DNA from: Denitrovibrio acetiphilus DSM 12809
GTDB lineage: Bacteria > Chrysiogenota > Deferribacteres > Deferribacterales > Geovibrionaceae
NCBI RefSeq assembly: GCF_000025725.1
Contig: NC_013943.1
Coordinates: 2,170,001-2,234,000 of the forward strand
Length of the DNA: 64,000 nucleotides
Reading direction: 5' to 3'
Numbering within the stretch: position 1 is the first letter of the stretch; each line of letters starts with the position of its first letter. A model generated the notes under the pieces. The model was not told the origin of the DNA and made no database searches. It saw only the letters and a list, made by a program, of their open reading frames with translations. The translations under genes were made by a program, and so were the position numbers. Positions 18,918 through 60,000 of the stretch are shown piece by piece.

Positions 18918-18918
18918 A

Positions 18919-22530: not shown

Positions 22531-22970
22531 TTATTCTCCTCCAGTTGGGTGTTGCTTCTGAAAACAAGCCGCCCGATAAACAGCAGTATCAAAAAAAGCG
22601 CGAAAGCGGATATAAGGATATTGCTCCCCCCTTCGACTGAAGCTTCATCAGGATTGAGTCCGGCAAAAGCCTGCACCAGCGCCTGTATCTCCTCATCCGG
22701 GATGTCCGAATCTGCGTATACAGCGTCCATAGGCTCTATTCCGCTTGCTTTTATAAAATCTGCAATAACCTCTGCGTCCTCTCCCATGTCAATATACAAA
22801 CTGCTTAGATCCGGCCCCCATGTTGAAATAGAGTACCCGCCTGCAGCAACAGAGTGACAGGTTGTGCAGGAGGGGCTGCCATCTGAAAACGGTTTGCCGA
22901 AAATATCAGCCCATGCACATGTAGCAGCACCTAAAACTGCTAATGTTATCAAAAAGATTATTTTTCTCAT
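22527..22970 (-). CDS. Membrane-anchored monoheme cytochrome c in the nar operon
   Basis: This 147-aa protein has an N-terminal signal peptide (to about residue 21, ATCAWA), one heme motif CTTCH (His39), a small cytochrome domain with a possible Met ligand near residues 67-80, and a C-terminal transmembrane helix (about 113-134) with a short charged tail. The heme domain therefore sits in the periplasm tethered to the membrane. It lies between narK (15 bases upstream) and narG (4-base overlap), so it is co-expressed with nitrate reductase. NarGHI enzymes usually need no c-type partner. A role in linking Nar to a periplasmic cytochrome pool is inferred. Confidence 0.88.
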   Translation of the reverse strand: MRKIIFLITLAVLGAATCAWADIFGKPFSDGSPSCTTCHSVAAGGYSISTWGPDLSSLYIDMGEDAEVIADFIKASGIEPMDAVYADSDIPDEEIQALVQAFAGLNPDEASVEGGSNILISAFALFLILLFIGRLVFRSNTQLEENK

Positions 22971-22985
22971 TTTTTCTCCTCAGAT

Positions 22986-24587
22986 TCAGGGGTTTCTGAT
23001 CTCGGCTCCCTTGCGTTGGTAGTACCACCAGTTGAGCACGAGACATATAAAATAATATGCGCCAAATCCGTAAAAGGCGTATTCAGGTGTTCCTGCAGCT
23101 ATCTGCTGACCAAATATCTTAGGGATGATAAATGCGCCATATGCCGCAATTGCAGATGTCCAGCCAAGTACAGGCCCCGCCTGATCTTTGCTAAATATGT
23201 ACGGGATACTTCTGAACGTTGAACCGTTTCCTATACCTGTTGTTATAAAGAGAATCATGAACATTCCGAAAAACGGCCACCAGAAAACCTCCGGCATCGG
23301 ACTCCCCTTTGCTGCCTTTATAAAATACGCAACGGCAAAGGTTGCGGCTATCTGGAGAATTGTGCTGACGGCTGTTACTTTCGCTCCGCTGTTCACCTTG
23401 TCGGCAAGCCATCCGCCAACAGGTCTTACGAGTGCTCCCAGAACAGGCCCGAGGAAAACCCACATGAGAAAATCAGGTGAATTCGGATTTCTGTATGCCA
23501 GATCCAACGGGTCGGTATAGACAAAAATATCCTGACAGAGCTTAGGAAAAGCCGCAGAGAATCCTATAAATGAACCGAATGTCATCGTATATATTGTGGT
23601 CATTATCCAGTTATGCTTACTTTTAAATATTGCGAACTGTTTGCTGAGGTTAACCTTTATCTCAGGCGGTGTGGCATATTTCATCAGCAGCAGTGTCATA
23701 ACCACCACAACCGGCAGCACTATCCACATATTGACATTCAGCCCCAAAAGCATATATGCGCCGATGCCGGAAGTAACAATGCCTATACTGGTCAGATAAA
23801 GAGTTTTGACCATGGCAGGAAGTGCCCGAGGCATTTTCGGAGTTCCTGCATCCACATTATTCATCAGAAAGAATGAAGCCGCGATAGTCACGACAAGCGG
23901 GATAAGCCATATCCACCCGGCATTCTGGATTCCTGAAAAAGCTGTTCCTGAAACTTCTATGCCATCACTGCCCACAGCGCTGAAAATAAAAATCCCTACG
24001 CTCCAAGGGATAGCTTTCTGCATTACCCCAACACCCAGATTACCTATCCCTGCATTCAAGCCAAGAGAAGTCCCCTGCATACGTTTCGGAAAGAAATAAC
24101 TGATATTACTCATAGACGATGCGAAATTCCCACCACCGAAACCTGATAAGGCTGCAAGTACAGCAAATGTTATATATGGGGTTCTGATATCTGAAAGTGC
24201 ATAGCCTACTCCCACAGCAGGAATTAAAAGCAGCGCAGTGGTCACGAAAATCACATTCCGCCCGCCACTGATGCCTATCAGAAAAGAATTTGGTATCCTG
24301 AGAGTAGCGCCGGACAGACCTGCTATCGCCGGAAGTGTGTAATAGAGGTTATTAATTTCTTTCAGAGCAGCATTGATCTCATCCTGATTCATTCCGTGAG
24401 TAATCATCCCGAAGTTATAACCAAACTCTTTAAGCTTAGTGGCTATTATGCTCCACATTATCCAGACAGCAAATGCCAGAAGAAGGGCGGGTATAGATAC
24501 TAAAAGATTTTTTATAGCAATCTTTTTCCCTTCACGCTCCCAAAACGAACGATCTTCAACATTCCATTTCTCAATGTTAATACGCAT
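22986..24587 (-). CDS. narK: Nitrate/nitrite transporter of the NarK family
   Basis: This 533-aa MFS transporter is longer than E. coli NarK (463 aa), with extra length in a periplasmic or loop insert before the second helix and a long N-terminal tail (MRINIEKWNVEDRSFWE). It has about 12 transmembrane helices and the nitrate-signature-like segments GGGNFASSMSNISYFFPKRMQG and TTGIGNGSTFRSIP. It imports nitrate and/or exports nitrite for the cytoplasm-facing NarG. AAGGGAG precedes the ATG. It is the first gene of narK-cytochrome-narGHJI, behind the FNR-type promoter at about 24711. Confidence 0.95.
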   Translation of the reverse strand: MRINIEKWNVEDRSFWEREGKKIAIKNLLVSIPALLLAFAVWIMWSIIATKLKEFGYNFGMITHGMNQDEINAALKEINNLYYTLPAIAGLSGATLRIPNSFLIGISGGRNVIFVTTALLLIPAVGVGYALSDIRTPYITFAVLAALSGFGGGNFASSMSNISYFFPKRMQGTSLGLNAGIGNLGVGVMQKAIPWSVGIFIFSAVGSDGIEVSGTAFSGIQNAGWIWLIPLVVTIAASFFLMNNVDAGTPKMPRALPAMVKTLYLTSIGIVTSGIGAYMLLGLNVNMWIVLPVVVVMTLLLMKYATPPEIKVNLSKQFAIFKSKHNWIMTTIYTMTFGSFIGFSAAFPKLCQDIFVYTDPLDLAYRNPNSPDFLMWVFLGPVLGALVRPVGGWLADKVNSGAKVTAVSTILQIAATFAVAYFIKAAKGSPMPEVFWWPFFGMFMILFITTGIGNGSTFRSIPYIFSKDQAGPVLGWTSAIAAYGAFIIPKIFGQQIAAGTPEYAFYGFGAYYFICLVLNWWYYQRKGAEIRNP

Positions 24588-31629: not shown

Positions 31630-32445
31630 TTATTTCATCAGTTCCTGAGCAGGGAGTATCGCTCCCTTATACTTCTCCGTTATGAATTTCTCAACGGCAG
31701 GCGAAACAAGGATTTCTGCAAGTTTCCTGAGTGCGGGTTTATCAAAATCAACTTTTCTCACAACAAGAATATTGCTGTAGGGTGAGTCTTTATCTTCGAT
31801 AAAAATTGCGTCTTTCAAAGGATTCAGGTTCCCTTCGAGTGCATAGTTGGTGTTAATAACCGCAGCGTCAACATCAGCTAGCACACGTGGAAGCTGAGCA
31901 GCGTCAAGAGCCTTGACCTTCAGCTTCTTAGGGTTGTCTACTATATCCTGAACAGTTGCGGAAACTCCGGCTCCGTCTTTTAGAGTAATGAGCTTTGCTT
32001 TGGCAAGGAGAGCAAGCGCCCTCCCGGCATTAGAAGGGTCGTTAGGGATGGCTACAATAGCTCTTTTTCTGAGATCAGCGATATTGCTTACCTTACGTGA
32101 GTAAACACCGATAGGCTCTATGTGAACCTTTGCAGCCACTGACAGATTCAGGTTGTGATCTCTGCTGAATGATTCCAGATAAGGGATATGCTGAAAAAAG
32201 TTAGCATCCAGTTCACCTCTGTCAAGGGCAAGGTTAGGCTGGACATAGTCTGTGAAGGAGATAATCTTAAGCTCAATCCCTTCTTTCTCAAGCATCGGCT
32301 TAATATACTCCAGTATCTCGGTGTGCGGGACAGGAGTCGCGCCGACCTTAAGAACAGTCTTTTCACCTGTTTCACAATAACCTGAAACACCCACCAGAAC
32401 CAGAAGAACAGTGAGCACTGTTGTTAATACTTTATTATGTTTCAT
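31630..32445 (-). CDS. metQ: Methionine ABC transporter substrate-binding protein (NlpA/MetQ family)
   Basis: MetQ binds methionine in the periplasm for the MetNI importer. The 271-aa protein has a signal peptide ending near SGYC and the family core VLKVGATPVPHTEILEYIKPMLEKEG, YVQPNLALDRGELDANFFQH and the IAIPNDPSNAGRAL type binding segment. A perfect lipobox is not evident, but Cys24 may be lipidated. It lies 32 bases after metI, the last gene of the operon. Confidence 0.92.
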   Translation of the reverse strand: MKHNKVLTTVLTVLLVLVGVSGYCETGEKTVLKVGATPVPHTEILEYIKPMLEKEGIELKIISFTDYVQPNLALDRGELDANFFQHIPYLESFSRDHNLNLSVAAKVHIEPIGVYSRKVSNIADLRKRAIVAIPNDPSNAGRALALLAKAKLITLKDGAGVSATVQDIVDNPKKLKVKALDAAQLPRVLADVDAAVINTNYALEGNLNPLKDAIFIEDKDSPYSNILVVRKVDFDKPALRKLAEILVSPAVEKFITEKYKGAILPAQELMK

Positions 32446-32477
32446 TCATACCTCCTGAGGCTTTCAGCCGTCAGCAT

Positions 32478-33146
32478 TTAATTTTTATGGGACAGTTTAA
32501 CCGCCAGCCTTGTGCCGAACGTCTGCACAAGCTGAACAAAGATTATGAGTATAGCCACTGTAACTATCATTATATCAGTACGAAACCTGTTATATCCATA
32601 CTGAATGGCAAGGTCACCCAGACCGCCGCCGCCGACAGCACCAGCCATTGCGGTGTAGCCTATCACGTTTATAACAGTTATTGCCGCTCCGAGGATAAGC
32701 GATGATTTTGATTCAGGGAGAAGAACCTTAAAAATTATCTGGAAAGTCGAAGCCCCCATAGACTCTGCTGCCTCAATCACACCGTGAGATACTTCTTTAA
32801 GAGAAGACTCCACTATCCTTGCCACAAAAGGAGCAGAAGCAACCACAAGGGGGACGATGGCGGCAGTTGTGCCTATTGATGTTCCAGCAACTATCCTTGT
32901 AAAAGGGATAAGAGCCACCATAAGGACTATGAACGGTGCTGAACGCAGTATATTGATCAGAGTTCCGAGAACCCGCTCAACCCAGGGTGCAGGCAGAATA
33001 TGGTCTTCTGATGAGACCACAAGCAGAACTCCCACCGGAAGCCCTATAATGTATGCCAGAACACAGGAAGCCACTACCATATAAAGCGTTTCCACTGTCG
33101 AAGGCCACAAAAGCCCTATTATATTATTAAAATATTCGTAATTCAT
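32478..33146 (-). CDS. metI: Methionine ABC transporter permease
   Basis: The 222-aa permease has five to six transmembrane helices and the EAA-type loop (AAESMGASTFQIIFKVLLPES), matching MetI (217 aa in E. coli). GYTAMAGAVGGGGLGDLAI is the typical C-terminal signature. It follows metN by 2 bases. Confidence 0.95.
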   Translation of the reverse strand: MNYEYFNNIIGLLWPSTVETLYMVVASCVLAYIIGLPVGVLLVVSSEDHILPAPWVERVLGTLINILRSAPFIVLMVALIPFTRIVAGTSIGTTAAIVPLVVASAPFVARIVESSLKEVSHGVIEAAESMGASTFQIIFKVLLPESKSSLILGAAITVINVIGYTAMAGAVGGGGLGDLAIQYGYNRFRTDIMIVTVAILIIFVQLVQTFGTRLAVKLSHKN

Positions 33147-33148
33147 AA

Positions 33149-34162
33149 CTATATCCTCTGAATAACGAGATTATTGTCAGTAAAATATTGATGAGCATTT
33201 GCAAGCTGCTCTTCCGTACCCCGAAGCTCAAGAAGGAGGTTACCAAAAAGGGTGCCGTGCAGATGGTCAACATTACCATATATTATATTCACAACCACAT
33301 CGCTTGACTTGATCAGTCCGTTTATCATAGGCTCAGATGCCGAATTCCCGTAAAATGATACTTTGATAAGCTCAGAATCTTTATGGGGCTTAAGGGCGCT
33401 GAGGATATCATCGGGAAGTTCTGTTCTGAAAATATCTGCCACAAAGTCCTTCGTTACCTGTGTTTTCGGAGAGATAAAAACTTCCTCAACAGTACCGTGT
33501 TCTATACACTTAGACTCTGCAAGCACGGCGACATGAGTGCATATGTCTTTGATAACATTCATTTCATGGGTAATGATGACAATAGTAAGCCCCAGATTCT
33601 GGTTGATATCTTTTAAGATACTCAGAATCGACGAGGTGGTTTTAGGGTCGAGAGCAGACGTTGCCTCGTCACAAAGCAGAACTTCAGGCTTTGTTGCCAG
33701 TGCTCTTGCTATACCGACTCTCTGTTTCTGCCCTCCGGAAAGCTCCGACGGGTATGAGTCTGCTTTATCTTCCAGCCCGACAAGGGGGAGGAGTTCGCTC
33801 ACCCTCTTTCTGATTGCGGTCTTGTCCCAGCCGGCAATCTCCAGCGGAAAACCTATATTTCCAGACACAGTCCTTGACTGAAGCAGATTAAAATGCTGAA
33901 AGATCATAGAGATCTTCTGTCTCTTCTGCCTGAGCTCTGTCTTTGAAAGAGTAGAGATATCCTGTTCTGAAATTAATACTTTCCCTTCGGTAGGCTTCTC
34001 CAGCATATTAAGACATCGAACCAGAGTGCTTTTCCCCGCACCACTGGAACCGATAATCCCGAAAATTGACCTTTCAGGTATATCAAGTGAGATATCCTGA
34101 AGAGCCTGTACTCTTCCGTTCAAAGTGTCATAAGACTTTGACAGGTTTCTGATCTGAATCAT
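33149..34162 (-). CDS. metN: Methionine ABC transporter ATP-binding protein
   Basis: The 337-aa subunit has an ATPase domain with Walker A GSSGAGKST, Q-loop FQHFNLL, signature LSGGQKQRVGIARAL, Walker B VLLCDEATSALD, and a C-terminal NIL regulatory domain (about 262-337) that binds methionine and causes trans-inhibition. GGGGG precedes the ATG. No SAM-I riboswitch was recognised in the 158 bases upstream; a TTGACA hexamer (34240-34235) is a possible -35 element. Confidence 0.95.
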   Translation of the reverse strand: MIQIRNLSKSYDTLNGRVQALQDISLDIPERSIFGIIGSSGAGKSTLVRCLNMLEKPTEGKVLISEQDISTLSKTELRQKRQKISMIFQHFNLLQSRTVSGNIGFPLEIAGWDKTAIRKRVSELLPLVGLEDKADSYPSELSGGQKQRVGIARALATKPEVLLCDEATSALDPKTTSSILSILKDINQNLGLTIVIITHEMNVIKDICTHVAVLAESKCIEHGTVEEVFISPKTQVTKDFVADIFRTELPDDILSALKPHKDSELIKVSFYGNSASEPMINGLIKSSDVVVNIIYGNVDHLHGTLFGNLLLELRGTEEQLANAHQYFTDNNLVIQRI

Positions 34163-34446: not shown

Positions 34447-34974
34447 ATGTTTCTCAAAAGAGGATTATTCACAAAAAAGCTATCTCCATGGTTAACAGGG
34501 TCACTAACGGGGATAACGGCAGCAGCGTGTTGCGTTTTCGCAGGAAAGACCCTTGGAGCATCCGGAGGTTTTGTCACTATCGACAGCTACATAGGAAATT
34601 ATTTCAACACAGGATGGGCAAAACTTCCATATTTTACTGCTGCAAAACCACCTATTTTATCTTTTCAGATAATCCAATATATAGGAATGCTCGCAGGAGC
34701 GATTATCTCTGCTCTTATGTCAAAAGATTTCCATATCAGATCCCTGCCTGCTAAAGAATGGAAACCAAATTTCGGCAAAAGTGTTGTTAAACGTTGGATA
34801 ATGATTTTTATCGGCGGAATACTTGTGGAGCTTGGAGCATGTATTGCCGGAGGCTGCACAAGCGGACTGGGCATATCCGGCATTATACAGCTTTCTCCGG
34901 CTGGTTTTATCTTTTTCATATCCGCATTCACAAGCGGCATAATTACTGCCGGAATACTCTTCAGGAGGACTTGA
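34447..34974 (+). CDS. YeeE/YedE-family sulfur transporter, first half
   Basis: The 175-aa membrane protein starts at ATG 34447, which follows CCGGAGGA; an upstream in-frame ATG has no binding site. It has about four to five transmembrane helices. The motif GACIAGGCTSGLGISG carries the Cys pair found in YeeE/YedE (TsuA) thiosulfate transporters and in the two-gene PmpA/PmpB type. The next gene encodes the partner half one base downstream. Transport of thiosulfate or another reduced sulfur species is inferred from the family. Confidence 0.85.
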   Translation: MFLKRGLFTKKLSPWLTGSLTGITAAACCVFAGKTLGASGGFVTIDSYIGNYFNTGWAKLPYFTAAKPPILSFQIIQYIGMLAGAIISALMSKDFHIRSLPAKEWKPNFGKSVVKRWIMIFIGGILVELGACIAGGCTSGLGISGIIQLSPAGFIFFISAFTSGIITAGILFRRT

Positions 34975-34975
34975 C

Positions 34976-35497
34976 ATGCAAAACTTTGCTCTCCCCCTTA
35001 TCATCGGTTTTATATTTGGTTTTTTACTTCAGAAAACAGGACTCGGGCATTATGATAAAATCGTCAATCAATTCAGATTTAGAGATAATACGATGCTTAA
35101 GTTTGTGTTGGGAGCCTTAACGTCAGGCATGATGACCATAGCAATATTCAAATCTGCCGGACTGCTGTCACCGGTTTCTATGCCGGACACATACATACTT
35201 GGTAATGCATCAGGAGGGCTCATACTAGGTATCGGGATGGTTATAGCCGGAGCATGCCCAGGTACACTGATAGCAGGGATCGGACAGGGCAACATAGACT
35301 ATCTCATTCCAGGATTATTGGGGTTTCTCGCAGGAGGACTGCTCTTCGGATATCTGTTTAGTTTTTTTGCTGTCAACATAGCTACCGTAGCATTCTACAA
35401 AGGAATATCCATTACAGACATCACCAACCTAAACAACTACATATTTGCTTTTGCTATGCTTGCTGTGAGCGTTGCAGCTGCAAAATTATTACGTTAA
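34976..35497 (+). CDS. YeeE/YedE-family sulfur transporter, second half
   Basis: The 173-aa protein has about five transmembrane helices and the family motif AGACPGTLIAGIGQG, with a Cys that in TsuA lines the pathway, plus LGALTSGMM. It is the natural partner of the preceding gene, with which it would form a full-length transporter split over two polypeptides. AGGAGGACTTGAC precedes its ATG. The rhodanese-like gene follows 18 bases later. Confidence 0.87.
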   Translation: MQNFALPLIIGFIFGFLLQKTGLGHYDKIVNQFRFRDNTMLKFVLGALTSGMMTIAIFKSAGLLSPVSMPDTYILGNASGGLILGIGMVIAGACPGTLIAGIGQGNIDYLIPGLLGFLAGGLLFGYLFSFFAVNIATVAFYKGISITDITNLNNYIFAFAMLAVSVAAAKLLR

Positions 35498-35515
35498 CAA
35501 AAAAGGATAAAAAAC

Positions 35516-35962
35516 ATGCGTAAATACATAACTATTATACTTATTGCTGCAGCTCTCATTATGTCAGCAGAGTCAATACGAAAAAATGACATACAACCGC
35601 ATACCGATATTTCAGACAGAAACATCGAACCATCATACATAATTACAGCAGAGGAACTTTACGAACTAGATAAAACAAGGCGTGCTGTAATTATCGACAC
35701 AAGAAGATATCTGGAATACTCCATCACACATATCCCCGGCTCGTTAAGCATCCCTCTGAAATATCTGGGCAACAGACTCAGCATTCTTGCCGGAAAGGAT
35801 AATATAGTTCTAGTTTCAGTATCCGAGCAGGCCGAAGCGGAAGCCCTCTCAATTATCAGAGCAGAACATTCTGACATGAATATAAAACTACTGAAAGGTG
35901 GTATAAAAACCTGGATAAAACACAACTACCCAATCAGCATTAAAATGCCGCATGGATGCTGA
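35516..35962 (+). CDS. Periplasmic rhodanese-like protein lacking the active-site Cys
   Basis: The 148-aa protein has an N-terminal signal or anchor helix (about 1-20) and a rhodanese fold: ITAEELYELDKTRRAVIIDTRRYLEYSITHIPGSLSIPL and a C-terminal LKGGIKTWIKHNYPI. The catalytic loop, normally C-R-x-G, reads VSVSEQAEA, so the active-site Cys is Ser. The only Cys in the whole protein is the final residue (PHGC). It follows the split sulfur transporter, so a periplasmic sulfur-carrier role via the terminal Cys is possible, though a purely structural role is equally open. Confidence 0.82.
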   Translation: MRKYITIILIAAALIMSAESIRKNDIQPHTDISDRNIEPSYIITAEELYELDKTRRAVIIDTRRYLEYSITHIPGSLSIPLKYLGNRLSILAGKDNIVLVSVSEQAEAEALSIIRAEHSDMNIKLLKGGIKTWIKHNYPISIKMPHGC

Positions 35963-35970
35963 CATTTCTC

Positions 35971-37242
35971 TTAACAGTCAGCAAGGACGTCATAAAGATG
36001 ATCAATCTCTGCCTCAGTGTTATACAAACCAAAGCTTACCCTAACCATACCGGGTCTTTTGTCCTGAGAGAGTGAGGAGTATTTTACAACTTCGTCAGAA
36101 GATATATCGAGCAGTTTCTGGACATATGGCTGGGCACAGAAGCATCCGCTCCGGACATCGATACCGCCGTTAAAAGCAAGATGCGCTGCAAGTTCGCTGT
36201 GATGTATGCCGTAAATATTAAATGGGATAACACCAATATTAACAGCTTTATCGTATTGGTCGGAATATATGCATATGTTTTTGACTTCTGACAATCTTCT
36301 ATAGGCATATGCAGCAAGCTTTTGCTCATATTCGTGTACTTTGCCCATACCAATATCATTCAGAGTGCGCAAAGCAGCTCCGAGGGCAACTATTCCCATG
36401 ACATTAGGAGTACCTGCCTCATATTTTAACGGAATATCATGCCACACAACAGAATCATACGTAACAATGTCAGCAGTTCCTCCACCTGAAAGATCCGGGG
36501 GATTATTCTCAAACACATGTTTATTACCGATAAGAACGCCTGTCCCGAATGGAGCATAGAGCTTGTGCCCGGAAAAAGCCATATAGTCAATACGCCTGTC
36601 TGTTTCCGGAGGATTCATATTTACTCTCATATGTGGTGCAAGCTGTGCGGCATCCACTAATATTTCTGCTCCACACCTATGTGCTGTCACTGCTATTTCA
36701 TAGATTGGGTTAACATAGCCTGTGACATTGGATGCCCCAGTAACGGCTACAAGCCTTAAGTCTCCGGAATATAATCGGCACTTCTCCTCAAAATCGTTAA
36801 GATCAAGCCGCCCTGTTCTGTCAGTATTGATATAAACGACATTAAAATTACGCCGCCAGGGCAGATCATTTGAATGATGCTCCATCCCTGAAACCAGAAC
36901 TGTCTTCCGACCTGCCGAAGCCAAAATGTTTGAAAGTCTGTTAATGCTCTCAGTTGTATTTCTCGTGAAAAGCACAGTCTGGTCAGCCTTTGAGACGTTG
37001 AAGAAATCTGCAACATATTCCCTCACAGAATCAAACATCTCTGATGTTCTCTCCGCTTTCCTGCCAGCTCCTCTGTGAACAGATGAATAGCACAGGGCAA
37101 ACTCATTAACAGCCTCCATTACAGGCACAAAGGGCGGGGTTGTTGCAGCATTATCAAAATTAATATTGCAGAGTTCTGCCTCAGAATAGTTGTTTTTAAC
37201 TACAAGATTCTTATATTGTGTGTTGTCTGTATTTTTTATCAT
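35971..37242 (-). CDS. PLP-dependent cysteine desulfurase/selenocysteine lyase-type enzyme
   Basis: This 423-aa class V aminotransferase-fold protein has the PLP-Lys motif FSGHKLYAPFGTG, NFDNAATTPPF at the start, TTESINRL, ASNVTGYVNPI and VDAAQLAPH. The C-terminal VRSGCFCAQPYV provides the catalytic Cys in a short loop, as in group II (SufS-like) desulfurases. The protein is somewhat longer than SufS (about 406 aa). The gene is convergent with the rhodanese-like gene, 8 bases apart. It probably mobilises sulfur from cysteine, making this a sulfur-handling cluster. No suf or isc genes are adjacent. Confidence 0.88.
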   Translation of the reverse strand: MIKNTDNTQYKNLVVKNNYSEAELCNINFDNAATTPPFVPVMEAVNEFALCYSSVHRGAGRKAERTSEMFDSVREYVADFFNVSKADQTVLFTRNTTESINRLSNILASAGRKTVLVSGMEHHSNDLPWRRNFNVVYINTDRTGRLDLNDFEEKCRLYSGDLRLVAVTGASNVTGYVNPIYEIAVTAHRCGAEILVDAAQLAPHMRVNMNPPETDRRIDYMAFSGHKLYAPFGTGVLIGNKHVFENNPPDLSGGGTADIVTYDSVVWHDIPLKYEAGTPNVMGIVALGAALRTLNDIGMGKVHEYEQKLAAYAYRRLSEVKNICIYSDQYDKAVNIGVIPFNIYGIHHSELAAHLAFNGGIDVRSGCFCAQPYVQKLLDISSDEVVKYSSLSQDKRPGMVRVSFGLYNTEAEIDHLYDVLADC

Positions 37243-45690: not shown

Positions 45691-46911
45691 ATGAGACTTT
45701 TATGTATTCTTATTTTTGTTATCATTACCAGTTTTGCCTCATATGCCGCCGACAACCTCGGACAAGCCTTTTCGCAAGGTACATTAAGAGGCGAATTAAG
45801 GACATTTTACTTTGACAGAGACTTCGATAGTTCTACAGAGAGAGAAGACTTTGCAACAGGAACTTTACTATACTACAAAACAGCACCGCTGCAAGGAATC
45901 AGTCTAGGGTTAGCATTTGCATCTTCCAACAATGTTGTCGTAGACAACGACAAGGATGTTTACGGACTTGTCGGCAGGGACAGTGACGGCAACCATGACA
46001 GCTATGCGAAATTGCAGGAATACTATATTCAGGGAGAATGGTTCAACACAGTGATCAAGTACGGAGCACAGGAAATATTCACCCCATTTGCTAATGTACA
46101 TGATATACGCATGACACCTAAAACATATAAAGGACTTTCTGTTATCAACAACAGCATTAACGGACTCACACTTTCAGGGTACTATCTCACAGGTTTCAGG
46201 GGTTGGAGTGACGAAAACTTCATGACAATGACAGAATCCGCAGGTTCTACCGAAGGTGACGACAACGCACTCTGGATAGGCGGTATTAAATATAAGATTC
46301 CAACTAAGATTGTAAAAGCTACAGTCGAGGGGTGGGAATACTATCTGGATGATGTTGTTCAGACTACATTCCTCAGAGCAAATGTTGACAAAACTTTTGG
46401 TGATTACAACCTTCAATTCACCCCTTCTTTTCTTACACAGAAGTCAAATGGTGACGAATATGCAGGAGACATAGACTCCACGCATTACGGATTCAACACA
46501 AGCGTTTCTGCATATGGTGTCAGCCTAACAGGATTCTATGCAAAAACAGAAGACGGCAGCATCTTTGCTCCATGGGGAGATGAGAAAGTTATCATTCAGC
46601 AGGTGCTCGCCGCAGATAGAGAAGACGAAAAAGCATATGCGGTTAAGCTGGCATACAATTTCAAAGCTCTTGGACTTGCCGGACTTGACGCATACGTTTT
46701 CCACAGCATTTATGACACACCTGAATCAGGTTCGACAGCGTCATCTGATTTTGACGAAACAGACTTTAGCCTTCAGTATAAATTCGATGAAAATTCTCCG
46801 CTGAAAGGGCTAAGTGTCAGAGTACGGTATGCAATAATAAACAAAGATACTGAAGAAGATTTTAACGACTTCCGTGTCTATATAAAATACAGCTTTGCCC
46901 TGCGCAAATAA
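45691..46911 (+). CDS. Outer-membrane porin (OprD/Opr-type), paralogue 1
   Basis: The 406-aa protein has a signal peptide (to YA-ADN) and a beta-barrel pattern of alternating residues and turns, ending in YIKYSFALRK with an aromatic near the C-terminus. It is clearly paralogous to the porin at 52843-54072: both share GTLxGELRTFYFxRDFD, LLYYKTAPLxGIS, YYIQGEWFxTVxKYGAQEI and APWGDxKVIIQQ. It probably gives the substrate of the adjacent reductase access to the periplasm. GGAGGAG precedes the ATG. A terminator-like hairpin separates it from the cytochrome gene. Confidence 0.88.
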   Translation: MRLLCILIFVIITSFASYAADNLGQAFSQGTLRGELRTFYFDRDFDSSTEREDFATGTLLYYKTAPLQGISLGLAFASSNNVVVDNDKDVYGLVGRDSDGNHDSYAKLQEYYIQGEWFNTVIKYGAQEIFTPFANVHDIRMTPKTYKGLSVINNSINGLTLSGYYLTGFRGWSDENFMTMTESAGSTEGDDNALWIGGIKYKIPTKIVKATVEGWEYYLDDVVQTTFLRANVDKTFGDYNLQFTPSFLTQKSNGDEYAGDIDSTHYGFNTSVSAYGVSLTGFYAKTEDGSIFAPWGDEKVIIQQVLAADREDEKAYAVKLAYNFKALGLAGLDAYVFHSIYDTPESGSTASSDFDETDFSLQYKFDENSPLKGLSVRVRYAIINKDTEEDFNDFRVYIKYSFALRK

Positions 46912-52842: not shown

Positions 52843-54072
52843 TTATTTGCCGCTTAAGGCGAAGCTGTATTTTATATACACACGAAAGTCATTGTAATCT
52901 TCCGCAGTGTCCTGATCGATAATCGCGTATCTTACCCGCACACTAAAACCTTTCAGATAAGAATCTTCATCGAATTTATACTGAAGGCTAAAGTCTGTTT
53001 CATCAATATCTGATGAAGCTGCTGCACCTGACTCCGGCGTGTCATACATGCCGTAGAAGACATAAGCATCAAGACCTCTGAGACCAAGTGCTCCGAAGTT
53101 ATACCCAAGCTTCACAGCATAGGCGTCTTCATCTGCTCTGCCTGCTGCAATAATCTGCTGGATAATAACTTTCCCGTCGCCCCATGGTGCGAATACCCCG
53201 TCATCGGGTGTTCTGGCGTAAAAGCCTGTGAGGCTTAAACCATAAGCAGCCACACCAGCATTAAAACCATACTGAGTTGTGTCAAAATCTCCGACAAGTT
53301 CATCACCCTGTGATTTCTGAGTGAGATAGGAAGGGGTGATGTGCAGGTTATAGTCACCTATTTTTTTACCAACAGACCCTTCAAAGTAAGTTGACTGAAA
53401 CACATCCTCAAGATAGTACTGCCAGCCTGCGACAGATGCCTTCACTACACTTACAGGAAGCTGATATTTTATACCGCCGACAAGAAGCGCACTGTCATCG
53501 TCACCAGCACCGGCAGACTCTGATATTGACATGAATTCATCATCGTTCCAGCCCATGAATTCAGTAATATAATAGCCTGAAAGAGTGAGACCATTAACAC
53601 TGTTATTCACTAAAGAAAGACCTTTATAAGTTTTAGGGCTCATACGTATATCGTGTTTATTCATGAAAGGAGTATTGATTTCCTGAGCACCATATTTTAC
53701 TACAGTATCAAACCACTCCCCCTGTATATAATATTCCTGCATACGGGTGTAGCTTTCATGGTCTCCGTCATCTCCTGTTGCAAGCAAACCATAGACATTT
53801 TTGTCTTCGTCGCTTCCCAGATCATTTGATGATGCAAATGCCAGCCCTGCGCTGATGCCGTGAAGCGGAGCTGTTTTGTAGTATAGAAGCGAACCTACGG
53901 CAAAGTCTGCTCTGTCAGTTGTAGCTTCGTCAAAATCACGTTCAAAATAGAAAGTTCTAAGTTCCCCTTTCAAAGTCCCCTTTGAAAATGCTTCTGCAAG
54001 AGTGTCCGCCGAATATGCAATAGAGCTGGTCATAATAAGAACCAGCATCGTAACTAAGTTCAAAAAACGCAT
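52843..54072 (-). CDS. Outer-membrane porin (OprD/Opr-type), paralogue 2
   Basis: ATG at 54072 follows GGAGGAATTTT and gives 409 aa; a 12-residue longer reading has no binding site. A signal peptide ends near SIAYSA-DTL. Barrel strands match porin 1 closely over the whole length, for instance GTLKGELRTFYFERDFDE and MSPKTYKGLSLVNNSVNG, and it ends YIKYSFALSGK. It lies on the same strand as the TorD-like, Fe-S and molybdopterin genes upstream, after a 115-base gap. I infer that it supplies that reductase with substrate. Confidence 0.88.
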   Translation of the reverse strand: MRFLNLVTMLVLIMTSSIAYSADTLAEAFSKGTLKGELRTFYFERDFDEATTDRADFAVGSLLYYKTAPLHGISAGLAFASSNDLGSDEDKNVYGLLATGDDGDHESYTRMQEYYIQGEWFDTVVKYGAQEINTPFMNKHDIRMSPKTYKGLSLVNNSVNGLTLSGYYITEFMGWNDDEFMSISESAGAGDDDSALLVGGIKYQLPVSVVKASVAGWQYYLEDVFQSTYFEGSVGKKIGDYNLHITPSYLTQKSQGDELVGDFDTTQYGFNAGVAAYGLSLTGFYARTPDDGVFAPWGDGKVIIQQIIAAGRADEDAYAVKLGYNFGALGLRGLDAYVFYGMYDTPESGAAASSDIDETDFSLQYKFDEDSYLKGFSVRVRYAIIDQDTAEDYNDFRVYIKYSFALSGK

Positions 54073-54187
54073 AAAATTCCTCCAAAAATTATAAATACAC
54101 AACTTCATTTAGCAGAATAAAATACCTCATTCCGCCTGAGTTAGAACAAAAATGCCTAAATAGCCTATTCCAGACAAGTTAGATTTG

Positions 54188-54817
54188 TTATCGCAGCATA
54201 AGAAGAGTCAAATCCAATACACCTCTGAAATAGTCTGTCTGTATATGTTCCTGGGCTCTACGATAAAATGATTCAAACCATACTTTGATATGTTCATTAA
54301 GAAAGTTTTCAGAAGTGTCTGTCAGCTTTACATACAGTTCATCATCCCCCTTCTCCAATGCATCCATTCTTAAAAGCCCGAGAGTTCCGATAAAATCCAG
54401 CTGGATACCGATATAATCCTGACGGTTAAGGTGCTCGGCATATGTCGTATAGCCTGCCTCAAGATATATCTCTGTCAGTTTTTTCAGATGTCCTGCTACA
54501 TCCCTTTTTTTCAGGTAGAGCTCTTCATAAGGAGCTTTTGGACCGTAATCCGGGGCAATACCTCTGAAAAGTTTTGTCCAGTCACGTTTGACAGCGAGGA
54601 TATCGTCTTCGTCCTTTTCATTAAACTTTTCTGCGAATGATTTTATCTTACCAAGTGCTTCCGCCACTTCAGTCTCATTCACCAGTTCAGGGGTAAGACC
54701 ACGCATTGCCACAACTGTTTCCAGCTCCGGATTCATATTGTAAAAACTTGCCAGTAGAGAAAATATTTCAGCATCATTTTCTGCAGCAGCAGTTTCAATA
54801 TCTATAACATCACTCAT
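54188..54817 (-). CDS. TorD/DmsD-family reductase assembly chaperone
   Basis: ATG at 54817 follows AAAGGAGATAG and gives 209 aa. The helical TorD fold is suggested by IFSLLASFYNMNPELETV, LFRGIAPDYGPKAPYEELYL (the conserved Gx-P-YE region) and EHLNRQDYIGIQLDFIGTL. Such chaperones bind the Tat signal of a molybdoenzyme and help cofactor insertion. Its partner is the catalytic subunit two genes upstream. Confidence 0.9.
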   Translation of the reverse strand: MSDVIDIETAAAENDAEIFSLLASFYNMNPELETVVAMRGLTPELVNETEVAEALGKIKSFAEKFNEKDEDDILAVKRDWTKLFRGIAPDYGPKAPYEELYLKKRDVAGHLKKLTEIYLEAGYTTYAEHLNRQDYIGIQLDFIGTLGLLRMDALEKGDDELYVKLTDTSENFLNEHIKVWFESFYRRAQEHIQTDYFRGVLDLTLLMLR

Positions 54818-54890
54818 AACTATCTCCTTTTGATTTCCCGGGCACATAACTATGCCCGGGATTTTGCGATAAACCTGAAGGGATGATATT

Positions 54891-55502
54891 TTAGCCTTCT
54901 ATATAAAAGACATTAGGTTTAGTTCCTTCCTCTGGTTTATATGGTTTAGGATTGTATTTCTTAAATACTTTAGATATCTCACTTTCAGGGTCATCAAGAT
55001 CGCCAAAGATTCTGGCAACACCTGCACAAGTCGCAACACAGGCAGGCGGAAGTCCTTTTGATCTTCTTGGAGCACAAAATGTACACTTGTCCACAGTCTC
55101 ATAGACATGTTCCTTACTTCTGGTTTCTTCGTAAAGGTTCTGTTCTCCTTTCTCACTCCAGTAAGTGGGTTTCTCCTCTTCGTTAAAGTATCTGGCGCCG
55201 TACGGGCAGGCTTCCATACATGCCTGACAGCCGATGCATTCAGATGCGGTTACCTGAACTGTACCATCCGCAAGCTTTTTAGAAGCTCCTGTAGGGCAAA
55301 CCTCAACGCATGGAGCATCATCACAGTGGTTGCATATCATGGGCATGTATTCATAATGAACATTCGGAAATTTTCCATGCTCAGTTATGATAGTTTTTGT
55401 CCAGAAAGTTCCAGGAGGTGTGGCGTTTGTCTGCTTACACGCAACTGTGCACCCCTGACATGCATAGCACCTTCTTTTATCTATTATCATTGCAAGTCTC
55501 AT
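54891..55502 (-). CDS. Four-cluster [4Fe-4S] electron-transfer subunit (DmsB/PsrB type)
   Basis: The 203-aa protein has four Cys groups: CYACQGCTVACKQTN, CNHCDDAPCVEVCPTG, CIGCQACMEACPYGARYF and CTFCAPRRSKGLPPACVATC. That is the pattern of DmsB/PsrB/NrfC-like subunits that pass electrons to a molybdopterin subunit. It has no signal peptide, so it would ride with the Tat-exported catalytic subunit. It lies 14 bases after that gene. AGGAGGA precedes its ATG. Confidence 0.94.
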   Translation of the reverse strand: MRLAMIIDKRRCYACQGCTVACKQTNATPPGTFWTKTIITEHGKFPNVHYEYMPMICNHCDDAPCVEVCPTGASKKLADGTVQVTASECIGCQACMEACPYGARYFNEEEKPTYWSEKGEQNLYEETRSKEHVYETVDKCTFCAPRRSKGLPPACVATCAGVARIFGDLDDPESEISKVFKKYNPKPYKPEEGTKPNVFYIEG

Positions 55503-55516
55503 GTTTATCCTCCTGA

Positions 55517-58234
55517 CTAGGCTTTATAAATGCGAACAGGCACAGTGTTTGACACGCCTACTGATATAGGGTCACAGTCTGAGATTTTCGCATTTGTAAG
55601 TTTGTTATACATCGGGAAGCTGGCGGCTTTCTTGCCAAGTGTTTTAACCAGACGCCCAAGAGCTCCACCGAAACCAACAACTCCGGGAAAGATCATCTCT
55701 GTTATGTGGACATCACCTTTAACTTTGCCGTTTTCAGACTCAACCCAGATAGTATCCCCTTCTTTTATGCCTTTTTCTTTCGCTGTGATAGAGTTCAGGC
55801 ATATTTTGCCGTATGATGGGTCAAACTTTTCACCAACTTCATTGAGATAAGGCATCTGGTCGTCACCAGCAACTCTCATAGGGGAGATAGGTAGTTTCCA
55901 GTTAATCGAAAGCAAGTCATATTTAGAGCCTTTTTTAGCTTCAGAGATTTTTTTCGGTCTCCATGTAACCATTGGTTCATAGTATTGAAGCTGATTTTCC
56001 ATATCAAAGTCAGGGATATAAACTTTATCTTTATATTCTGTAAAGAATTCACGAAGAATATCACCGCTTTCTTTAGTTTTATTAAAGTAAATTGGGTGAC
56101 GTGTTTCACCTTTTTTAAACCATGAAGAGTTATAAGCGTCAGCAGGAGCCATAACATTAATGATAAGACCATCTTTCTTCATTGTGTCCAGCCCTTTACC
56201 AAAGTATGCTTTTGCGCCTTTATCCCATATTTCACTGATGGTATATTTCTTACCGTGTTTCAGATAATCTTTCGGATCAAGTTTGGCAAATGTAACCTCA
56301 CCAAGGATCACGCCTGTGTTGTTGATGGCGTCGTTGAAGTCATTAATCATACCCATACGGTCACAGAGCTCGATGATAATATTCTGCGGCTGCATTGTGT
56401 TATATATGGAAGGGATAGGATCCCTGTACATCATAACTCTTGTGGAAATTGTCTCTTTTGTGTAAACGTCAAAAGCCCCTTCGTATGAGTTCACAGACTC
56501 TTTTTCAAGCATGGCGTGGCTTGGCAGAAGTATGTCTGCCATATGAGCCATTTCATCATAGTGATATGCTACTGTTGCAGAAAATGGAATTTTAGATACT
56601 GATTCTGCAACAACATATGGTTCTGTCGTGCTCGCAATAGGATTACTTCCCACTGTAAGAAGGGCATCAATCTCGTACTCAAGACCGTATTTATGCGGAT
56701 CAAGAGCAACTTTATATGCCAGAGTAGGCAGTGTGTGCTTATGAGGGAAATATTCTTTAAGGTTAACATGCTGAGGAGGGTAACTAGGTTTCTTAAGCCT
56801 CGCCTCACCTTTCGCTGCCACAACGCCATCCTCGTCAGGACTTAGAAACGGTCCTCGCTGTGTTCCAAGCATACCGCCCGGCACGTCCATAGACCCCACA
56901 AGCATATTCAATGTTTTAGTGAGAAGGTCACCGGAAACACCGTCACGGAGGTTTTTAAGTCCTCTCTTACCTTCGCATACAGATGTGCGTTTCGGCAGAA
57001 CAACTTTTTCGCCTTTACCGTTGACCATTTCAATAGATTCACCGATGCTTGCGTTATCGATGAAATCTCTGGCGATTTCTCTTATTTTTGATGCAGGTAT
57101 CCCTGATTTCTCAGAAGCCCACTCAGGAGTGTATTGTTTGTAGTGTCTCTTGATAAGGACAAAAGAGGCATCCGCTTTAACACCGTTAACCATAACATTT
57201 GCTTTCTCAATGGATGGTTCCTTAAGAGTCTTATCATCAAATGATTTAACTTTTCCGTCAGACGCATCATAGATCTGAGGCTTTCCGTCTTTACCTCTGG
57301 CATAGTATCCGTCAGGACCGATGAGGTAAGGAGCGTTTGTTCTCCATTGCAGGAAGTCGACATCATATCTTTTAACATCATAAAGAATACTATTAACAAC
57401 ACCTAGAAGAAAAGCTGTCTCCCCCCCCGGACGGATCGGAACCCATTCGTTTTTGGAAGCGTCAGGGCCGCAGTGAGGGTCAACCATAACGATTTTGATG
57501 TCTTTGTCTTCATACATTCTGTCAAGAAGCCCACGTACTCCACCATCGGATGAGGCTATCCCCATACCAAGGTTCATGCCGAGAGCAAGTATGTACTTAC
57601 AGTGTGTAGCATCGGGTTTTACACCAGGGAAAACACCCTGACAAAGATCAGATGCATAGTGCAGAACACAGAGTGTTCCGTTGCTTTTAATATTATTCGG
57701 AGTACCATAGGCATCTGAAAAATAGAAAAGAAATGTTCCGAAAAAGTCGAAATCACCAAAACCTATCTGAAAGATGAACCTTCTGGGGTCTCTGTCACGA
57801 CTTTTTTTCAGAACTGAAGCTGTTGTATTCAGAGCTTCTTCCCATGATATTTCTACCCAACCCGGATCTTCATTAAGTCCTTTTTTGGGATTAGTTCGTT
57901 TCATAGGAGCTTTAACTCTGTATGGATTGTAATTGTGCTGAATGATTGAGTTACCTTTAGCACAAAGAGCACCTTTACTAGTCGGAGTGTTGAAGTTCCC
58001 CATAACCTGAACTGCAACGCCGTTTTCAACACGAATCATGTTTGGGCAGGTTCCACGCATGCACATACGGCAGTGACCGTAACGCCATCCGTCCTGCATA
58101 AGGTTTTTCATTTTGTTTGTTGATGAGAGCTCAGCCGCTTTAGCGCTGCTGAGGTTTATCCCCACAACAGAAGCAACGCCAGCTATACTGGCTGCTTTCA
58201 AAACAGACCTTCTGCTTAATTGAATACTTTTCAT
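55517..58234 (-). CDS. Tat-exported molybdopterin oxidoreductase, catalytic subunit
   Basis: This 905-aa DMSO-reductase-superfamily enzyme has a Tat signal (SRRSVLKAASIAG), the [4Fe-4S] motif CRMCMRGTC with a fourth Cys in GALCAKG and two MopB domains. The residue aligning with the molybdenum ligand is the Cys of SNGTLCVLHYASD, as in formate-dehydrogenase or polysulfide/arsenate-reductase relatives, not the Ser of DmsA. GEKVVLPKRTSVCEGKRGLKNLRDG and DILLPSHAMLEKESVNSYEG are typical of polysulfide, thiosulfate or arsenate-like reductases. There is no membrane anchor gene in the cluster. The electron acceptor cannot be fixed from this. Confidence 0.94.
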   Translation of the reverse strand: MKSIQLSRRSVLKAASIAGVASVVGINLSSAKAAELSSTNKMKNLMQDGWRYGHCRMCMRGTCPNMIRVENGVAVQVMGNFNTPTSKGALCAKGNSIIQHNYNPYRVKAPMKRTNPKKGLNEDPGWVEISWEEALNTTASVLKKSRDRDPRRFIFQIGFGDFDFFGTFLFYFSDAYGTPNNIKSNGTLCVLHYASDLCQGVFPGVKPDATHCKYILALGMNLGMGIASSDGGVRGLLDRMYEDKDIKIVMVDPHCGPDASKNEWVPIRPGGETAFLLGVVNSILYDVKRYDVDFLQWRTNAPYLIGPDGYYARGKDGKPQIYDASDGKVKSFDDKTLKEPSIEKANVMVNGVKADASFVLIKRHYKQYTPEWASEKSGIPASKIREIARDFIDNASIGESIEMVNGKGEKVVLPKRTSVCEGKRGLKNLRDGVSGDLLTKTLNMLVGSMDVPGGMLGTQRGPFLSPDEDGVVAAKGEARLKKPSYPPQHVNLKEYFPHKHTLPTLAYKVALDPHKYGLEYEIDALLTVGSNPIASTTEPYVVAESVSKIPFSATVAYHYDEMAHMADILLPSHAMLEKESVNSYEGAFDVYTKETISTRVMMYRDPIPSIYNTMQPQNIIIELCDRMGMINDFNDAINNTGVILGEVTFAKLDPKDYLKHGKKYTISEIWDKGAKAYFGKGLDTMKKDGLIINVMAPADAYNSSWFKKGETRHPIYFNKTKESGDILREFFTEYKDKVYIPDFDMENQLQYYEPMVTWRPKKISEAKKGSKYDLLSINWKLPISPMRVAGDDQMPYLNEVGEKFDPSYGKICLNSITAKEKGIKEGDTIWVESENGKVKGDVHITEMIFPGVVGFGGALGRLVKTLGKKAASFPMYNKLTNAKISDCDPISVGVSNTVPVRIYKA

Positions 58235-58581: not shown

Positions 58582-60000
58582 ATGCTACTGACATGGAAAT
58601 ATGATGAGAAGCTGAATTCACCTATGTACATGCAGCTCGCTGACTACATCCGAATGAAGATAAGAACAGGAGACCTGAAAGACGGTACCAAACTGCCCGG
58701 CAGAAACTCGCTAATGACAATTTTCGGTGTGAGTAAAACCACACTGCTGTCTGCTTTTGATCAGCTTCAGCGTGAAGGTCTGCTTCAGGCATACCCGAAA
58801 TCAGGCTTTTTTGTCACATATAACAACGAAGAAAGTAAAATCGACTGGAAGAAATATATAGAAAAAGCAAAACACAGGACAACTATTGACGAATACAGAT
58901 ACTGGGGGGAGTCTGACGGATTGGTAAATTTCAGCCTCAGCAGTGACTTTGAAATGGGACATTACTTAAAAGATGCTATGATAAACGCCTCTGAAAGGGT
59001 CATCAACATTGACGCTGCATCAGAAATTTCCAAATACGGGCTTAATTCTCTCAGAGAGTCCGTCAGGGAACATGTAAAACATTTCGGCATAAAAACTGAT
59101 ATCGAAAACATATTGATCACATCAGAAACAATACAAAGACTCTATTTCGTTTATGAAACTCTGCTGAACTCATGCTCTAATTTTCTGTATGAAGATACGA
59201 ATATTATTAATACCATATCAAATGTTCACTCACTGGGCATGAACATGATTCCTATCAAAATGGACAAAAACGGCATGTCATCCGCTGAGCTTGAGAAGAA
59301 ACTTATCAAATCAAAATTCTGCCCTATAATACACATCGATCCCACAGACCAGGCTCCCACAGGGGTTGTTATGAGCAAGAAACGCAGGCAGGAGATTATC
59401 AATATTATACAAAAATACAGAGTGCCTCTGGTGGAAGTTGATCACTCTGCAAACATATGGCACGACAAACCCACCCTTGCCCCTTTAAAATCAATGGATA
59501 AGAACGGAAATATTATCTATCTGGGCAGTATGCTGAAAATACACCCTTTTGACTTCCAGCTTTCATGGATTATAGCAGACAGGTATTTCATAGAACATCT
59601 GAGTAATGTTTTTATTCAAAACGGTGTAAAACCCAACTTTATGATGCAGCTTATCACAGACGAAATGATCAAAAATGGTAAGATGTATGAAATGATGGGC
59701 GATATAAAAAAATTTGTAAATAACAGGAGGGAGAAAACTCTCCGGCTATGTGATAAATATTTCAAATCAAAGGGATACTGGATAGAAAAGAACTGCTCAT
59801 TTCACTTTTGGATAGATTTCCCTGAAGTGAACATAAAAAATATAGTTGCCAGAAACAAACTGGAAAAAACAATCTATCCCGGCTATTTTTTCAACCCACA
59901 GGATACAAGCCACATTCTGATATGCCCTTCATGCATTAAAGAAGATGCACTGGAAAGGAGTTTCGCACACATCAGCAAACTTGTTGATGAAGCAAGGTAA
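58582..60000 (+). CDS. MocR-type regulator (GntR HTH fused to an aminotransferase-like domain)
   Basis: The 472-aa protein has an N-terminal GntR winged helix (YMQLADYIRMKIRTG, LPGRNSLMTIFGVSKTTL and GLLQAYPKSGFFV) and a C-terminal fold-type I aminotransferase-like domain. The Lys that binds PLP in MocR is present (IYLGSMLK), but the usual E-DDYDSEF segment reads EVDHSANIW, so the Tyr is His and cofactor binding may be altered. It is divergent from the molybdoenzyme operon and probably controls it or itself. GGAGACGAT precedes the ATG. Confidence 0.9.
   Translation: MLLTWKYDEKLNSPMYMQLADYIRMKIRTGDLKDGTKLPGRNSLMTIFGVSKTTLLSAFDQLQREGLLQAYPKSGFFVTYNNEESKIDWKKYIEKAKHRTTIDEYRYWGESDGLVNFSLSSDFEMGHYLKDAMINASERVINIDAASEISKYGLNSLRESVREHVKHFGIKTDIENILITSETIQRLYFVYETLLNSCSNFLYEDTNIINTISNVHSLGMNMIPIKMDKNGMSSAELEKKLIKSKFCPIIHIDPTDQAPTGVVMSKKRRQEIINIIQKYRVPLVEVDHSANIWHDKPTLAPLKSMDKNGNIIYLGSMLKIHPFDFQLSWIIADRYFIEHLSNVFIQNGVKPNFMMQLITDEMIKNGKMYEMMGDIKKFVNNRREKTLRLCDKYFKSKGYWIEKNCSFHFWIDFPEVNIKNIVARNKLEKTIYPGYFFNPQDTSHILICPSCIKEDALERSFAHISKLVDEAR

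What the first reader, a model, noticed from the sequence alone, without database searches (positions are those of the whole stretch)
34447..35962. Rhodanese-like protein whose only Cys is its last residue
The active-site Cys is replaced (VSVSEQ) and the sole Cys ends the chain (PHGC). It is periplasmic by its N-terminus and follows a two-part YeeE/YedE transporter. A mobile terminal Cys recalls the C-terminal Cys arm of DsrC/TusE, so it may be a sulfur carrier feeding the transporter.
Basis: partly seen in the sequence, partly recalled or inferred. Interest (0 to 1): 0.65.

Follow-up and report, generated by a model that had tools for sequence, protein, structure and literature searches.

The report
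Tail-cysteine rhodanese beside sulfur importer
A small, probably secreted relative of sulfur-transfer enzymes has lost its usual reactive cysteine and instead ends in one, a feature kept in every close relative found, beside genes for a split sulfur importer and a sulfur-releasing enzyme, so it may be a new style of sulfur-carrying protein.

Summary
Window 35516-35962 encodes a 148-aa rhodanese-domain protein with a signal-like N-terminus. The active-site Cys is Ser; the only Cys is the last residue. None of 34 other rhodanese ORFs ends in Cys.

The gene belongs to a four-gene cassette: split YeeE/YedE importer (PmpA-type and PmpB-type halves), this protein, and a SufS-like desulfurase. In one relative the cassette is a ~3.0-kb block between genes that are nearly adjacent in a sister genome. 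The desulfurase occurs in exactly the same five genomes; a Tat-type Mo-oxidoreductase (Psr/Phs/Arr-like) in those five plus one.

Best reading: a periplasmic sulfane-sulfur carrier presenting a persulfide on a mobile tail to the split importer. Conservation and linkage are shown; location, persulfide, docking and direction are inferred. Homologous split pairs import zero-valent sulfur (published). Selenoprotein supply is contradicted (two of the five lack selD). DsrC/TusE is analogy only. My named literature searches returned no description. New variant of a known kind.

The parts
34447..34974 (+). PmpA-type half of a split YeeE/YedE transporter (matches the C-terminal half of PF04143)
   Evidence: PF04143 E 4.9e-19, profile 168-307; one Cys (C137, GGCTSG) invariant in 4 of 4 aligned
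34976..35497 (+). PmpB-type half of the split transporter (matches the N-terminal half of PF04143)
   Evidence: PF04143 E 5.9e-15, profile 10-146; one Cys (C94, AGxCPGT) invariant in 4 of 4 aligned
35516..35962 (+). rhodanese-like protein, cradle Cys replaced by Ser101, sole Cys = last residue (PHGC-stop), signal-like N-terminus
   Evidence: 5 of 5 family members end in PxGC
35948..35959 (+). codons of the C-terminal Pro-His-Gly-Cys
   Evidence: CCG CAT GGA TGC before stop TGA
35971..37242 (-). SufS-like class-V PLP enzyme (cysteine desulfurase-like) with an RSGCFCAQPY loop; catalytic Lys and Cys aligned with SufS
   Evidence: PF00266 E 1.5e-91; NCBIfam sufS 305 bits, below its cut-off of 475; alignment to 5j8q; same five genomes as the rhodanese
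52843..58234 (-). linked operon, 15.6 kb away here but next to the cassette in relatives: porin, TorD-type chaperone, 4Fe-4S subunit, 905-aa twin-arginine Mo-oxidoreductase
58582..60000 (+). MocR-type regulator divergent to the Mo operon
   Evidence: NCBIfam MocR models (PdxR 1.1e-62, below cut-off); next to the Mo operon in G021, G022 and G031 and, cut by the region's end, in G026 and G027

Best explanation
A periplasmic sulfane-sulfur carrier. The rhodanese fold is kept as a scaffold, its cradle cysteine is gone, and the reactive thiol has moved to the last residue of a short, probably flexible tail. Sulfane sulfur formed or met in the periplasm, perhaps through the linked Mo-oxidoreductase, would be held as a persulfide on Cys148. 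The tail would present it to the outer mouth of the split YeeE/YedE importer, whose two conserved cysteines pass it inward, and the SufS-like enzyme would handle sulfur on the cytoplasmic side. Shown by sequence: the tail Cys and its conservation, loss of the cradle Cys, the four-gene unit, co-occurrence. Inferred: export to the periplasm, persulfide, docking, direction, the role of the desulfurase and the substrate of the Mo enzyme.
For: All five copies end in PxGC at fixed distance from the last Trp while most other columns vary (15 of 150 invariant). The cradle position is S, A, A, F, F. Gene order PmpA-type, PmpB-type, rhodanese in the 4 of 5 loci where it can be read, with a 4-base overlap of the last two in 3 of them. 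The four genes form a block present in G021 and absent at the same site in G022. The desulfurase is in the same 5 of 50 genomes. [quoted passage not shown] both Cys positions are kept here. Tail residues 142-148 have pLDDT below 50 in the model, in line with a mobile tail.
Against: No biochemistry. A cytoplasmic desulfurase makes sulfane sulfur inside, which does not call for import. G031 has a second desulfurase plus split pair without a rhodanese (L072) and G002 a split pair without one (L071), so the carrier is not needed by every pair. The structural model is weak (mean pLDDT 60.7) and the second was worse (48.4). Only five copies, all in one phylum.
Confidence: 0.5

Rival explanations
1. 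Structural or redox tail: the terminal Cys forms a disulfide (a dimer, or a bond to a partner such as the transporter) and carries no sulfur; the dead rhodanese is an adaptor.
For: Sole mature Cys, dead cradle, poorly ordered tail.
Against: It would not by itself explain the steady company of a desulfurase and a sulfur importer.
Confidence: 0.17
2. Outward route: the desulfurase takes sulfur from cysteine in the cytoplasm, the split pair passes it out, and the tail Cys delivers it to the exported Mo-oxidoreductase (for its cofactor or as substrate).
For: Desulfurase, pair, carrier and Mo enzyme are linked. Precedent for desulfurase-to-Mo-pterin relay through a Cys at the end of the chain (Cys1135, module 747-1136) in Caldithrix ergothioneine synthase, a single cytoplasm-tested polypeptide (PMC9516567, passages).
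Against: YedE1E2 did not speed export (PMC10812762). G022 has a 92% identical Mo enzyme and no cassette. The Mo operon is 15.6 kb away in the window.
Confidence: 0.13
3. Metal or metalloid handling: the terminal Cys binds a soft metal or arsenite and the pair and desulfurase serve resistance.
For: A desulfurase relative with the same CFC loop (45.5%) lies in a copper and heavy-metal efflux region of a Methylobacterium plasmid. The Mo enzyme resembles ArrA among others.
Against: No metal-efflux or metal-regulator gene was recognised in the cassette loci; a lone Cys is a poor metal site; the pair is of a sulfur-transport family.
Confidence: 0.08
4. Selenium delivery for selenoproteins.
For: Weak matches of the halves to YedE selenium families; one carrier is a Seleniivibrio MAG.
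Against: selD was not found in G021 (100% complete) or G031 (88% complete), 2 of the 5 carriers.
Confidence: 0.05

Closest known systems
YedE1E2 / PmpA-PmpB split YeeE/YedE transporters
   Same: Two half-proteins matching the two halves of PF04143, one conserved Cys each; reported near rhodanese and PDO genes (PMC10812762, passages)
   Different: Halves of 171-175 aa here against about 130 aa reported for PmpA and PmpB; partner is a tail-Cys rhodanese and a desulfurase, not PDO
SoxT with SoxYZ (sulfur import in sulfur oxidisers)
   Same: YeeE-family importer thought to take sulfur from a periplasmic carrier (PMC11582611, passages)
   Different: Full-length transporter; the carrier is SoxYZ; no tail-Cys rhodanese in the passages read
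Single-domain rhodaneses (3gk5, YgaP domain)
   Same: Same domain by profile and by fold search
   Different: Cradle Cys lost in 5 of 5; sole mature Cys at the very end
DsrC / TusE C-terminal Cys arm
   Same: Works-alike idea: a reactive Cys at the end of a mobile tail (recalled)
   Different: No family match; last rather than penultimate residue and one Cys rather than two (DsrC details recalled); probably periplasmic
Caldithrix metallopterin-dependent ergothioneine synthase
   Same: Desulfurase paired with a Mo-pterin module, with a relay Cys at the end of the chain (PMC9516567, passages)
   Different: One fused polypeptide with no transporter; here separate proteins on two sides of a membrane
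Cys-Cys-COOH selenoprotein SaoC
   Same: Named for a terminal Cys in a protein listed with transporter subunits (PMC13188914, one passage)
   Different: Listed with ABC transporter subunits; no rhodanese relation seen

Membership tests
Rhodanese domain family (PF00581) | Profile match above the curated cut-off | tested here: met
   43 bits against 22.2, E 6.6e-11
Rhodanese domain family (PF00581) | Rhodanese fold | tested here: met
   Foldseek best hit 3gk5 E 7.5e-5, prob 1.00, from a low-confidence model
Active rhodanese / sulfurtransferase | Catalytic Cys in the cradle loop | tested here: not met
   S, A, A, F, F in the five copies
DsrC/TusE | Sequence family match | tested here: not met
   Pfam scan at E 0.01 returned Rhodanese only
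DsrC/TusE | Two conserved Cys in the C-terminal arm, one penultimate (recalled definition) | tested here: not met
   One Cys, the last residue
Split YeeE/YedE pair (YedE1E2, PmpAB) | Two adjacent genes matching opposite halves of PF04143 | tested here: met
   profile 168-307 and 10-146
Split YeeE/YedE pair (YedE1E2, PmpAB) | One conserved Cys in each half | tested here: met
   C137 and C94 invariant in 4 of 4 aligned
Split YeeE/YedE pair (YedE1E2, PmpAB) | Import of zero-valent sulfur | not testable with these tools
   needs a transport assay
SufS cysteine desulfurase | PLP Lys and catalytic Cys | tested here: met
   SGHKLYAPFG and C369 align with the Lys and Cys of 5j8q
SufS cysteine desulfurase | Curated NCBIfam cut-off (TIGR01979) | tested here: not met
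   305.4 bits against 475.1
PhsA / ArrA (linked Mo enzyme) | Curated NCBIfam cut-off | tested here: not met
   184 against 694 and 144 against 1600 bits
Selenium-supply locus | selD in all carriers | tested here: not met
   not found in G021 and G031, 2 of 5 carriers

The most novel reading that the evidence does not exclude
A rhodanese family in which the sulfur-carrying cysteine has left the catalytic cradle and moved to the very end of the chain, making a periplasmic persulfide arm that docks into a split YeeE/YedE channel: a dedicated loading protein for sulfur import, carried as a four-gene unit with its own desulfurase and tied to an unassigned exported Mo-oxidoreductase.
Probability: 0.35. 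Interest if true: 0.75.

Novelty: new variant of a known kind. Interest (0 to 1): 0.57.

Why it matters
How sulfane sulfur is handed to YeeE/YedE transporters from outside is poorly understood: the SoxT paper calls sulfur import poorly understood and considers SoxYZ as donor (PMC11582611). A small protein whose only candidate reactive group is one terminal Cys is an unusually clean test, since one substitution should abolish function. If true it also shows a reactive cysteine moving from the core of a fold to its tail within the rhodanese family.

Tried and rejected
Chance terminal Cys: rejected by 5 of 5 family members against 4 of 253 ORFs of 150 aa or more and 0 of 34 other rhodanese ORFs. 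One search scored 40 rows; 6 were the family itself (one a truncated second copy of G021's, L086). The 34 include domains of larger proteins, ORFs that may be cut at locus ends, and one ORF from a plasmid record (L015).

Conservation forced by the overlapping desulfurase gene: in G026 and G027 the last 32 bases overlap it, but not in the window, G021 or G031, where PxGC is also kept.

Terminal Cys-Sec by readthrough: the stop after the Cys codon is TGA in all five, but the frames downstream are not conserved, two of the five genomes lack selD, and I saw no shared hairpin in the single-sequence folds. Rejected.

Relatives outside the phylum: two genome-contig scans gave only two loci, both Deferribacterota records; A1 in viral contigs gave none; the plasmid search gave other rhodaneses, none covering 80% of the query. 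The patterns were narrow, so absence elsewhere is not shown.

Structure: both models are weak and the distance from tail Cys to cradle was not measured. Mo enzyme substrate: not resolved.

Papers: searches (YeeE, rhodanese, thiosulfate; rhodanese, C-terminal cysteine, sulfur carrier; PmpA, PmpB, rhodanese; YedE, cysteine desulfurase, rhodanese; terminal cysteine, sulfurtransferase, YeeE) showed no description of this protein or cassette in the listings; passages were read in PMC9516567, PMC11582611, PMC13047784, PMC13188914, PMC12170894, PMC10812762, PMC9312934 and PMC13186404. Searches were also run.

Full report
What is there. Window 35516-35962 (+) encodes 148 aa with a charged, strongly hydrophobic N-terminus and a rhodanese domain (PF00581, E 6.6e-11). 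The residue aligned with the loop Cys of 3gk5 is Ser101, and the only Cys is residue 148, the last. It is the third gene of a tight run: two half-length PF04143 proteins (34447-34974, C-terminal half of the profile; 34976-35497, N-terminal half), 1 bp apart, then 18 bp to the rhodanese gene. A convergent SufS-like class-V enzyme follows (35971-37242). The genome is one contig of 3,222,077 bases; I recall this as the size of the Denitrovibrio acetiphilus chromosome, which no call confirms.

Is the terminal Cys conserved? The protein was searched in all 50 genomes held for the phylum (150 were asked for, 50 exist) and again as a profile. Five loci stand out (profile E below 1e-47): the window, G026, G027, G021 and G031; the next match is 2.5e-11. 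Their pairwise identity is 26-53%. All five end in P-x-G-C-stop, the last Trp is 15 residues from the end in each, and the cradle position reads S, A, A, F, F. Fifteen of 150 columns are invariant and three of these are P145, G147 and C148. G026 and G021 have one further Cys each, at residues 13 and 4, inside the hydrophobic N-terminus. G031's copy starts at a contig edge, so its N-terminus is unknown. Controls: 4 of 253 ORFs of 150 aa or more in the window and fetched loci end in Cys; 0 of 34 other rhodanese ORFs do. Codons of the tail differ synonymously between copies. In G026 and G027 the end of the gene overlaps the desulfurase gene, but the tail is kept in the three genomes without overlap.

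What travels with it. In G026, G027 and G021 the rhodanese gene overlaps the PmpB-type gene by four bases, and a desulfurase gene is part of the locus, convergent in G026 and G027 and co-directional in G021. In G031, contig C93 ends inside the PmpB-type gene, after desulfurase and PmpA-type genes, and contig C58 begins inside the rhodanese gene; that these contigs adjoin is inferred. The desulfurase (E up to 1e-60) occurs in exactly the five genomes with the rhodanese and in none of the other 45. Such a coincidence has a chance of 1 in about 2.1 million (ways to choose 5 of 50, my arithmetic), not corrected for kinship. Carriers are scattered: 1 of 3, 1 of 3, 2 of 5 and 1 of 2 genomes in four genera.

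The unit. G022 has the same Mo enzyme and MocR regulator as G021 (92% and 85% identical) and the same MFS gene beyond (67%), but no cassette. In G021 the two homologous flanks are about 3.04 kb apart; in G022 about 95 bp. The extra block holds rhodanese, PmpB-type, PmpA-type and desulfurase genes (L018 8072-10863). No cassette protein was found in the 20 kb around the G022 locus, nor anywhere in G022 at their thresholds. So the four genes came or went together, and the Mo enzyme can exist without them.

The Mo-oxidoreductase. A 905-aa enzyme with a twin-arginine-like N-terminus, a 203-aa ferredoxin subunit, TorD-type chaperone and porin lies beside the cassette in G027 and G021. In G026 the same order is seen, with a reading-frame overlap hiding the ferredoxin gene in my non-overlapping list. 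In G031 the enzyme and the MocR gene lie beside desulfurase and importer genes on C93. In the window the operon is 15.6 kb away (52843-58234). Hits at E up to 1e-60 occur in the five carriers and G022, with paralogues in G021, G022 and G027. It resembles PhsA, ArrA and PsrA but reaches no curated cut-off; a Cys aligns with the Cys of PsrA that I recall as the Mo ligand. A recent study of the order notes that telling such enzymes apart from sequence remains challenging (PMC13186404, passages). Its substrate is unknown.

How it most likely works. Published on homologues: PmpA and PmpB match the C- and N-terminal halves of full-length YeeE, each with one conserved Cys (PMC11582611, passages). [quoted passage not shown] The halves here keep one invariant Cys each in the four copies aligned. 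The simplest role for a probably exported rhodanese fold with a dead cradle and an invariant terminal Cys beside such an importer is a carrier that lifts sulfane sulfur on its tail and presents it to the pair. The AlphaFold model is poor (mean pLDDT 60.7) but gives a rhodanese fold (best Foldseek hit 3gk5) with residues 142-148 below pLDDT 50. That agrees with a flexible tail but does not prove one; with three sequences in the alignment low confidence is expected anyway, and the second model was worse.

What speaks against it or stays open. A cytoplasmic cysteine desulfurase makes sulfane sulfur inside, so the opposite direction must be considered. In Caldithrix ergothioneine synthase a fused desulfurase passes sulfur to a Mo-pterin site through Cys1074 and Cys1135, the latter at the end of a module given as residues 747-1136 (PMC9516567, passages). 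Against an outward route stand the published import direction and G022, whose Mo enzyme does without the cassette. G031 has a second desulfurase-importer set with no rhodanese (L072) and G002 a split pair with none (L071), so the tail protein is not obligatory for every pair. A relative of the desulfurase in a Methylobacterium copper-resistance region (45.5%) has the same CFC loop: the enzyme subtype is not confined to this cassette, and a metal-related reading stays alive. Selenium supply for selenoproteins is contradicted because selD was not found in G021 and G031.

Comparison with the known. It is a rhodanese-domain protein by profile but fails the defining feature of an active rhodanese. 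It is not DsrC/TusE (no family match, one Cys, last residue), though it may work alike. The transporter is a split YeeE/YedE pair by the sequence features tested. A rhodanese with an invariant terminal Cys, and this cassette, did not appear in the listings and passages that my searches returned.

Verdict. Mechanism at 0.5; interest 0.57; new variant of a known kind.

Noticed in passing
window 31630-34162: NlpA-family lipoprotein, permease and ATPase genes (MetQ/MetI/MetN-like; only the lipoprotein was profiled) diverge from the cassette; a similar set also neighbours the importer genes in G027 (L017 9466-12044).
   Followed up: partly
window 35960-35962 and the same site in L002-L005: The stop after the terminal Cys codon is TGA in all five copies (TGY TGA); about a third of the stops counted in these loci are TGA. 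Two of the genomes lack selD, so readthrough to Sec is unlikely.
   Followed up: yes
L072 (G031 contig C74) 1329-3636: A second desulfurase plus split YeeE/YedE set without the rhodanese, followed by a possible outer-membrane protein and preceded by multihaem cytochromes.
   Followed up: partly
L097 7408-9317 (Methylobacterium aquaticum plasmid): Closest plasmid relative of the desulfurase (45.5%), with the same CFC loop, beside a DUF4395 gene and a heavy-metal P-type ATPase.
   Followed up: partly
window 45691-46911 and 52843-54108: Two OprD/Opr-type porins with similar N-terminal sequences; one follows an FAD-binding oxidoreductase and a haem-motif gene, the other closes the Mo operon.
   Followed up: no
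G010, G013, G026 and others (selD hits): Most selD matches in the phylum carry one in-frame TGA, so SelD is probably itself a selenoprotein there.
   Followed up: no
window 16317-24587: By eye a respiratory nitrate reductase-like operon (1203-aa NarG-like, 479-aa NarH-like subunits) (names recalled, not profiled).
   Followed up: no
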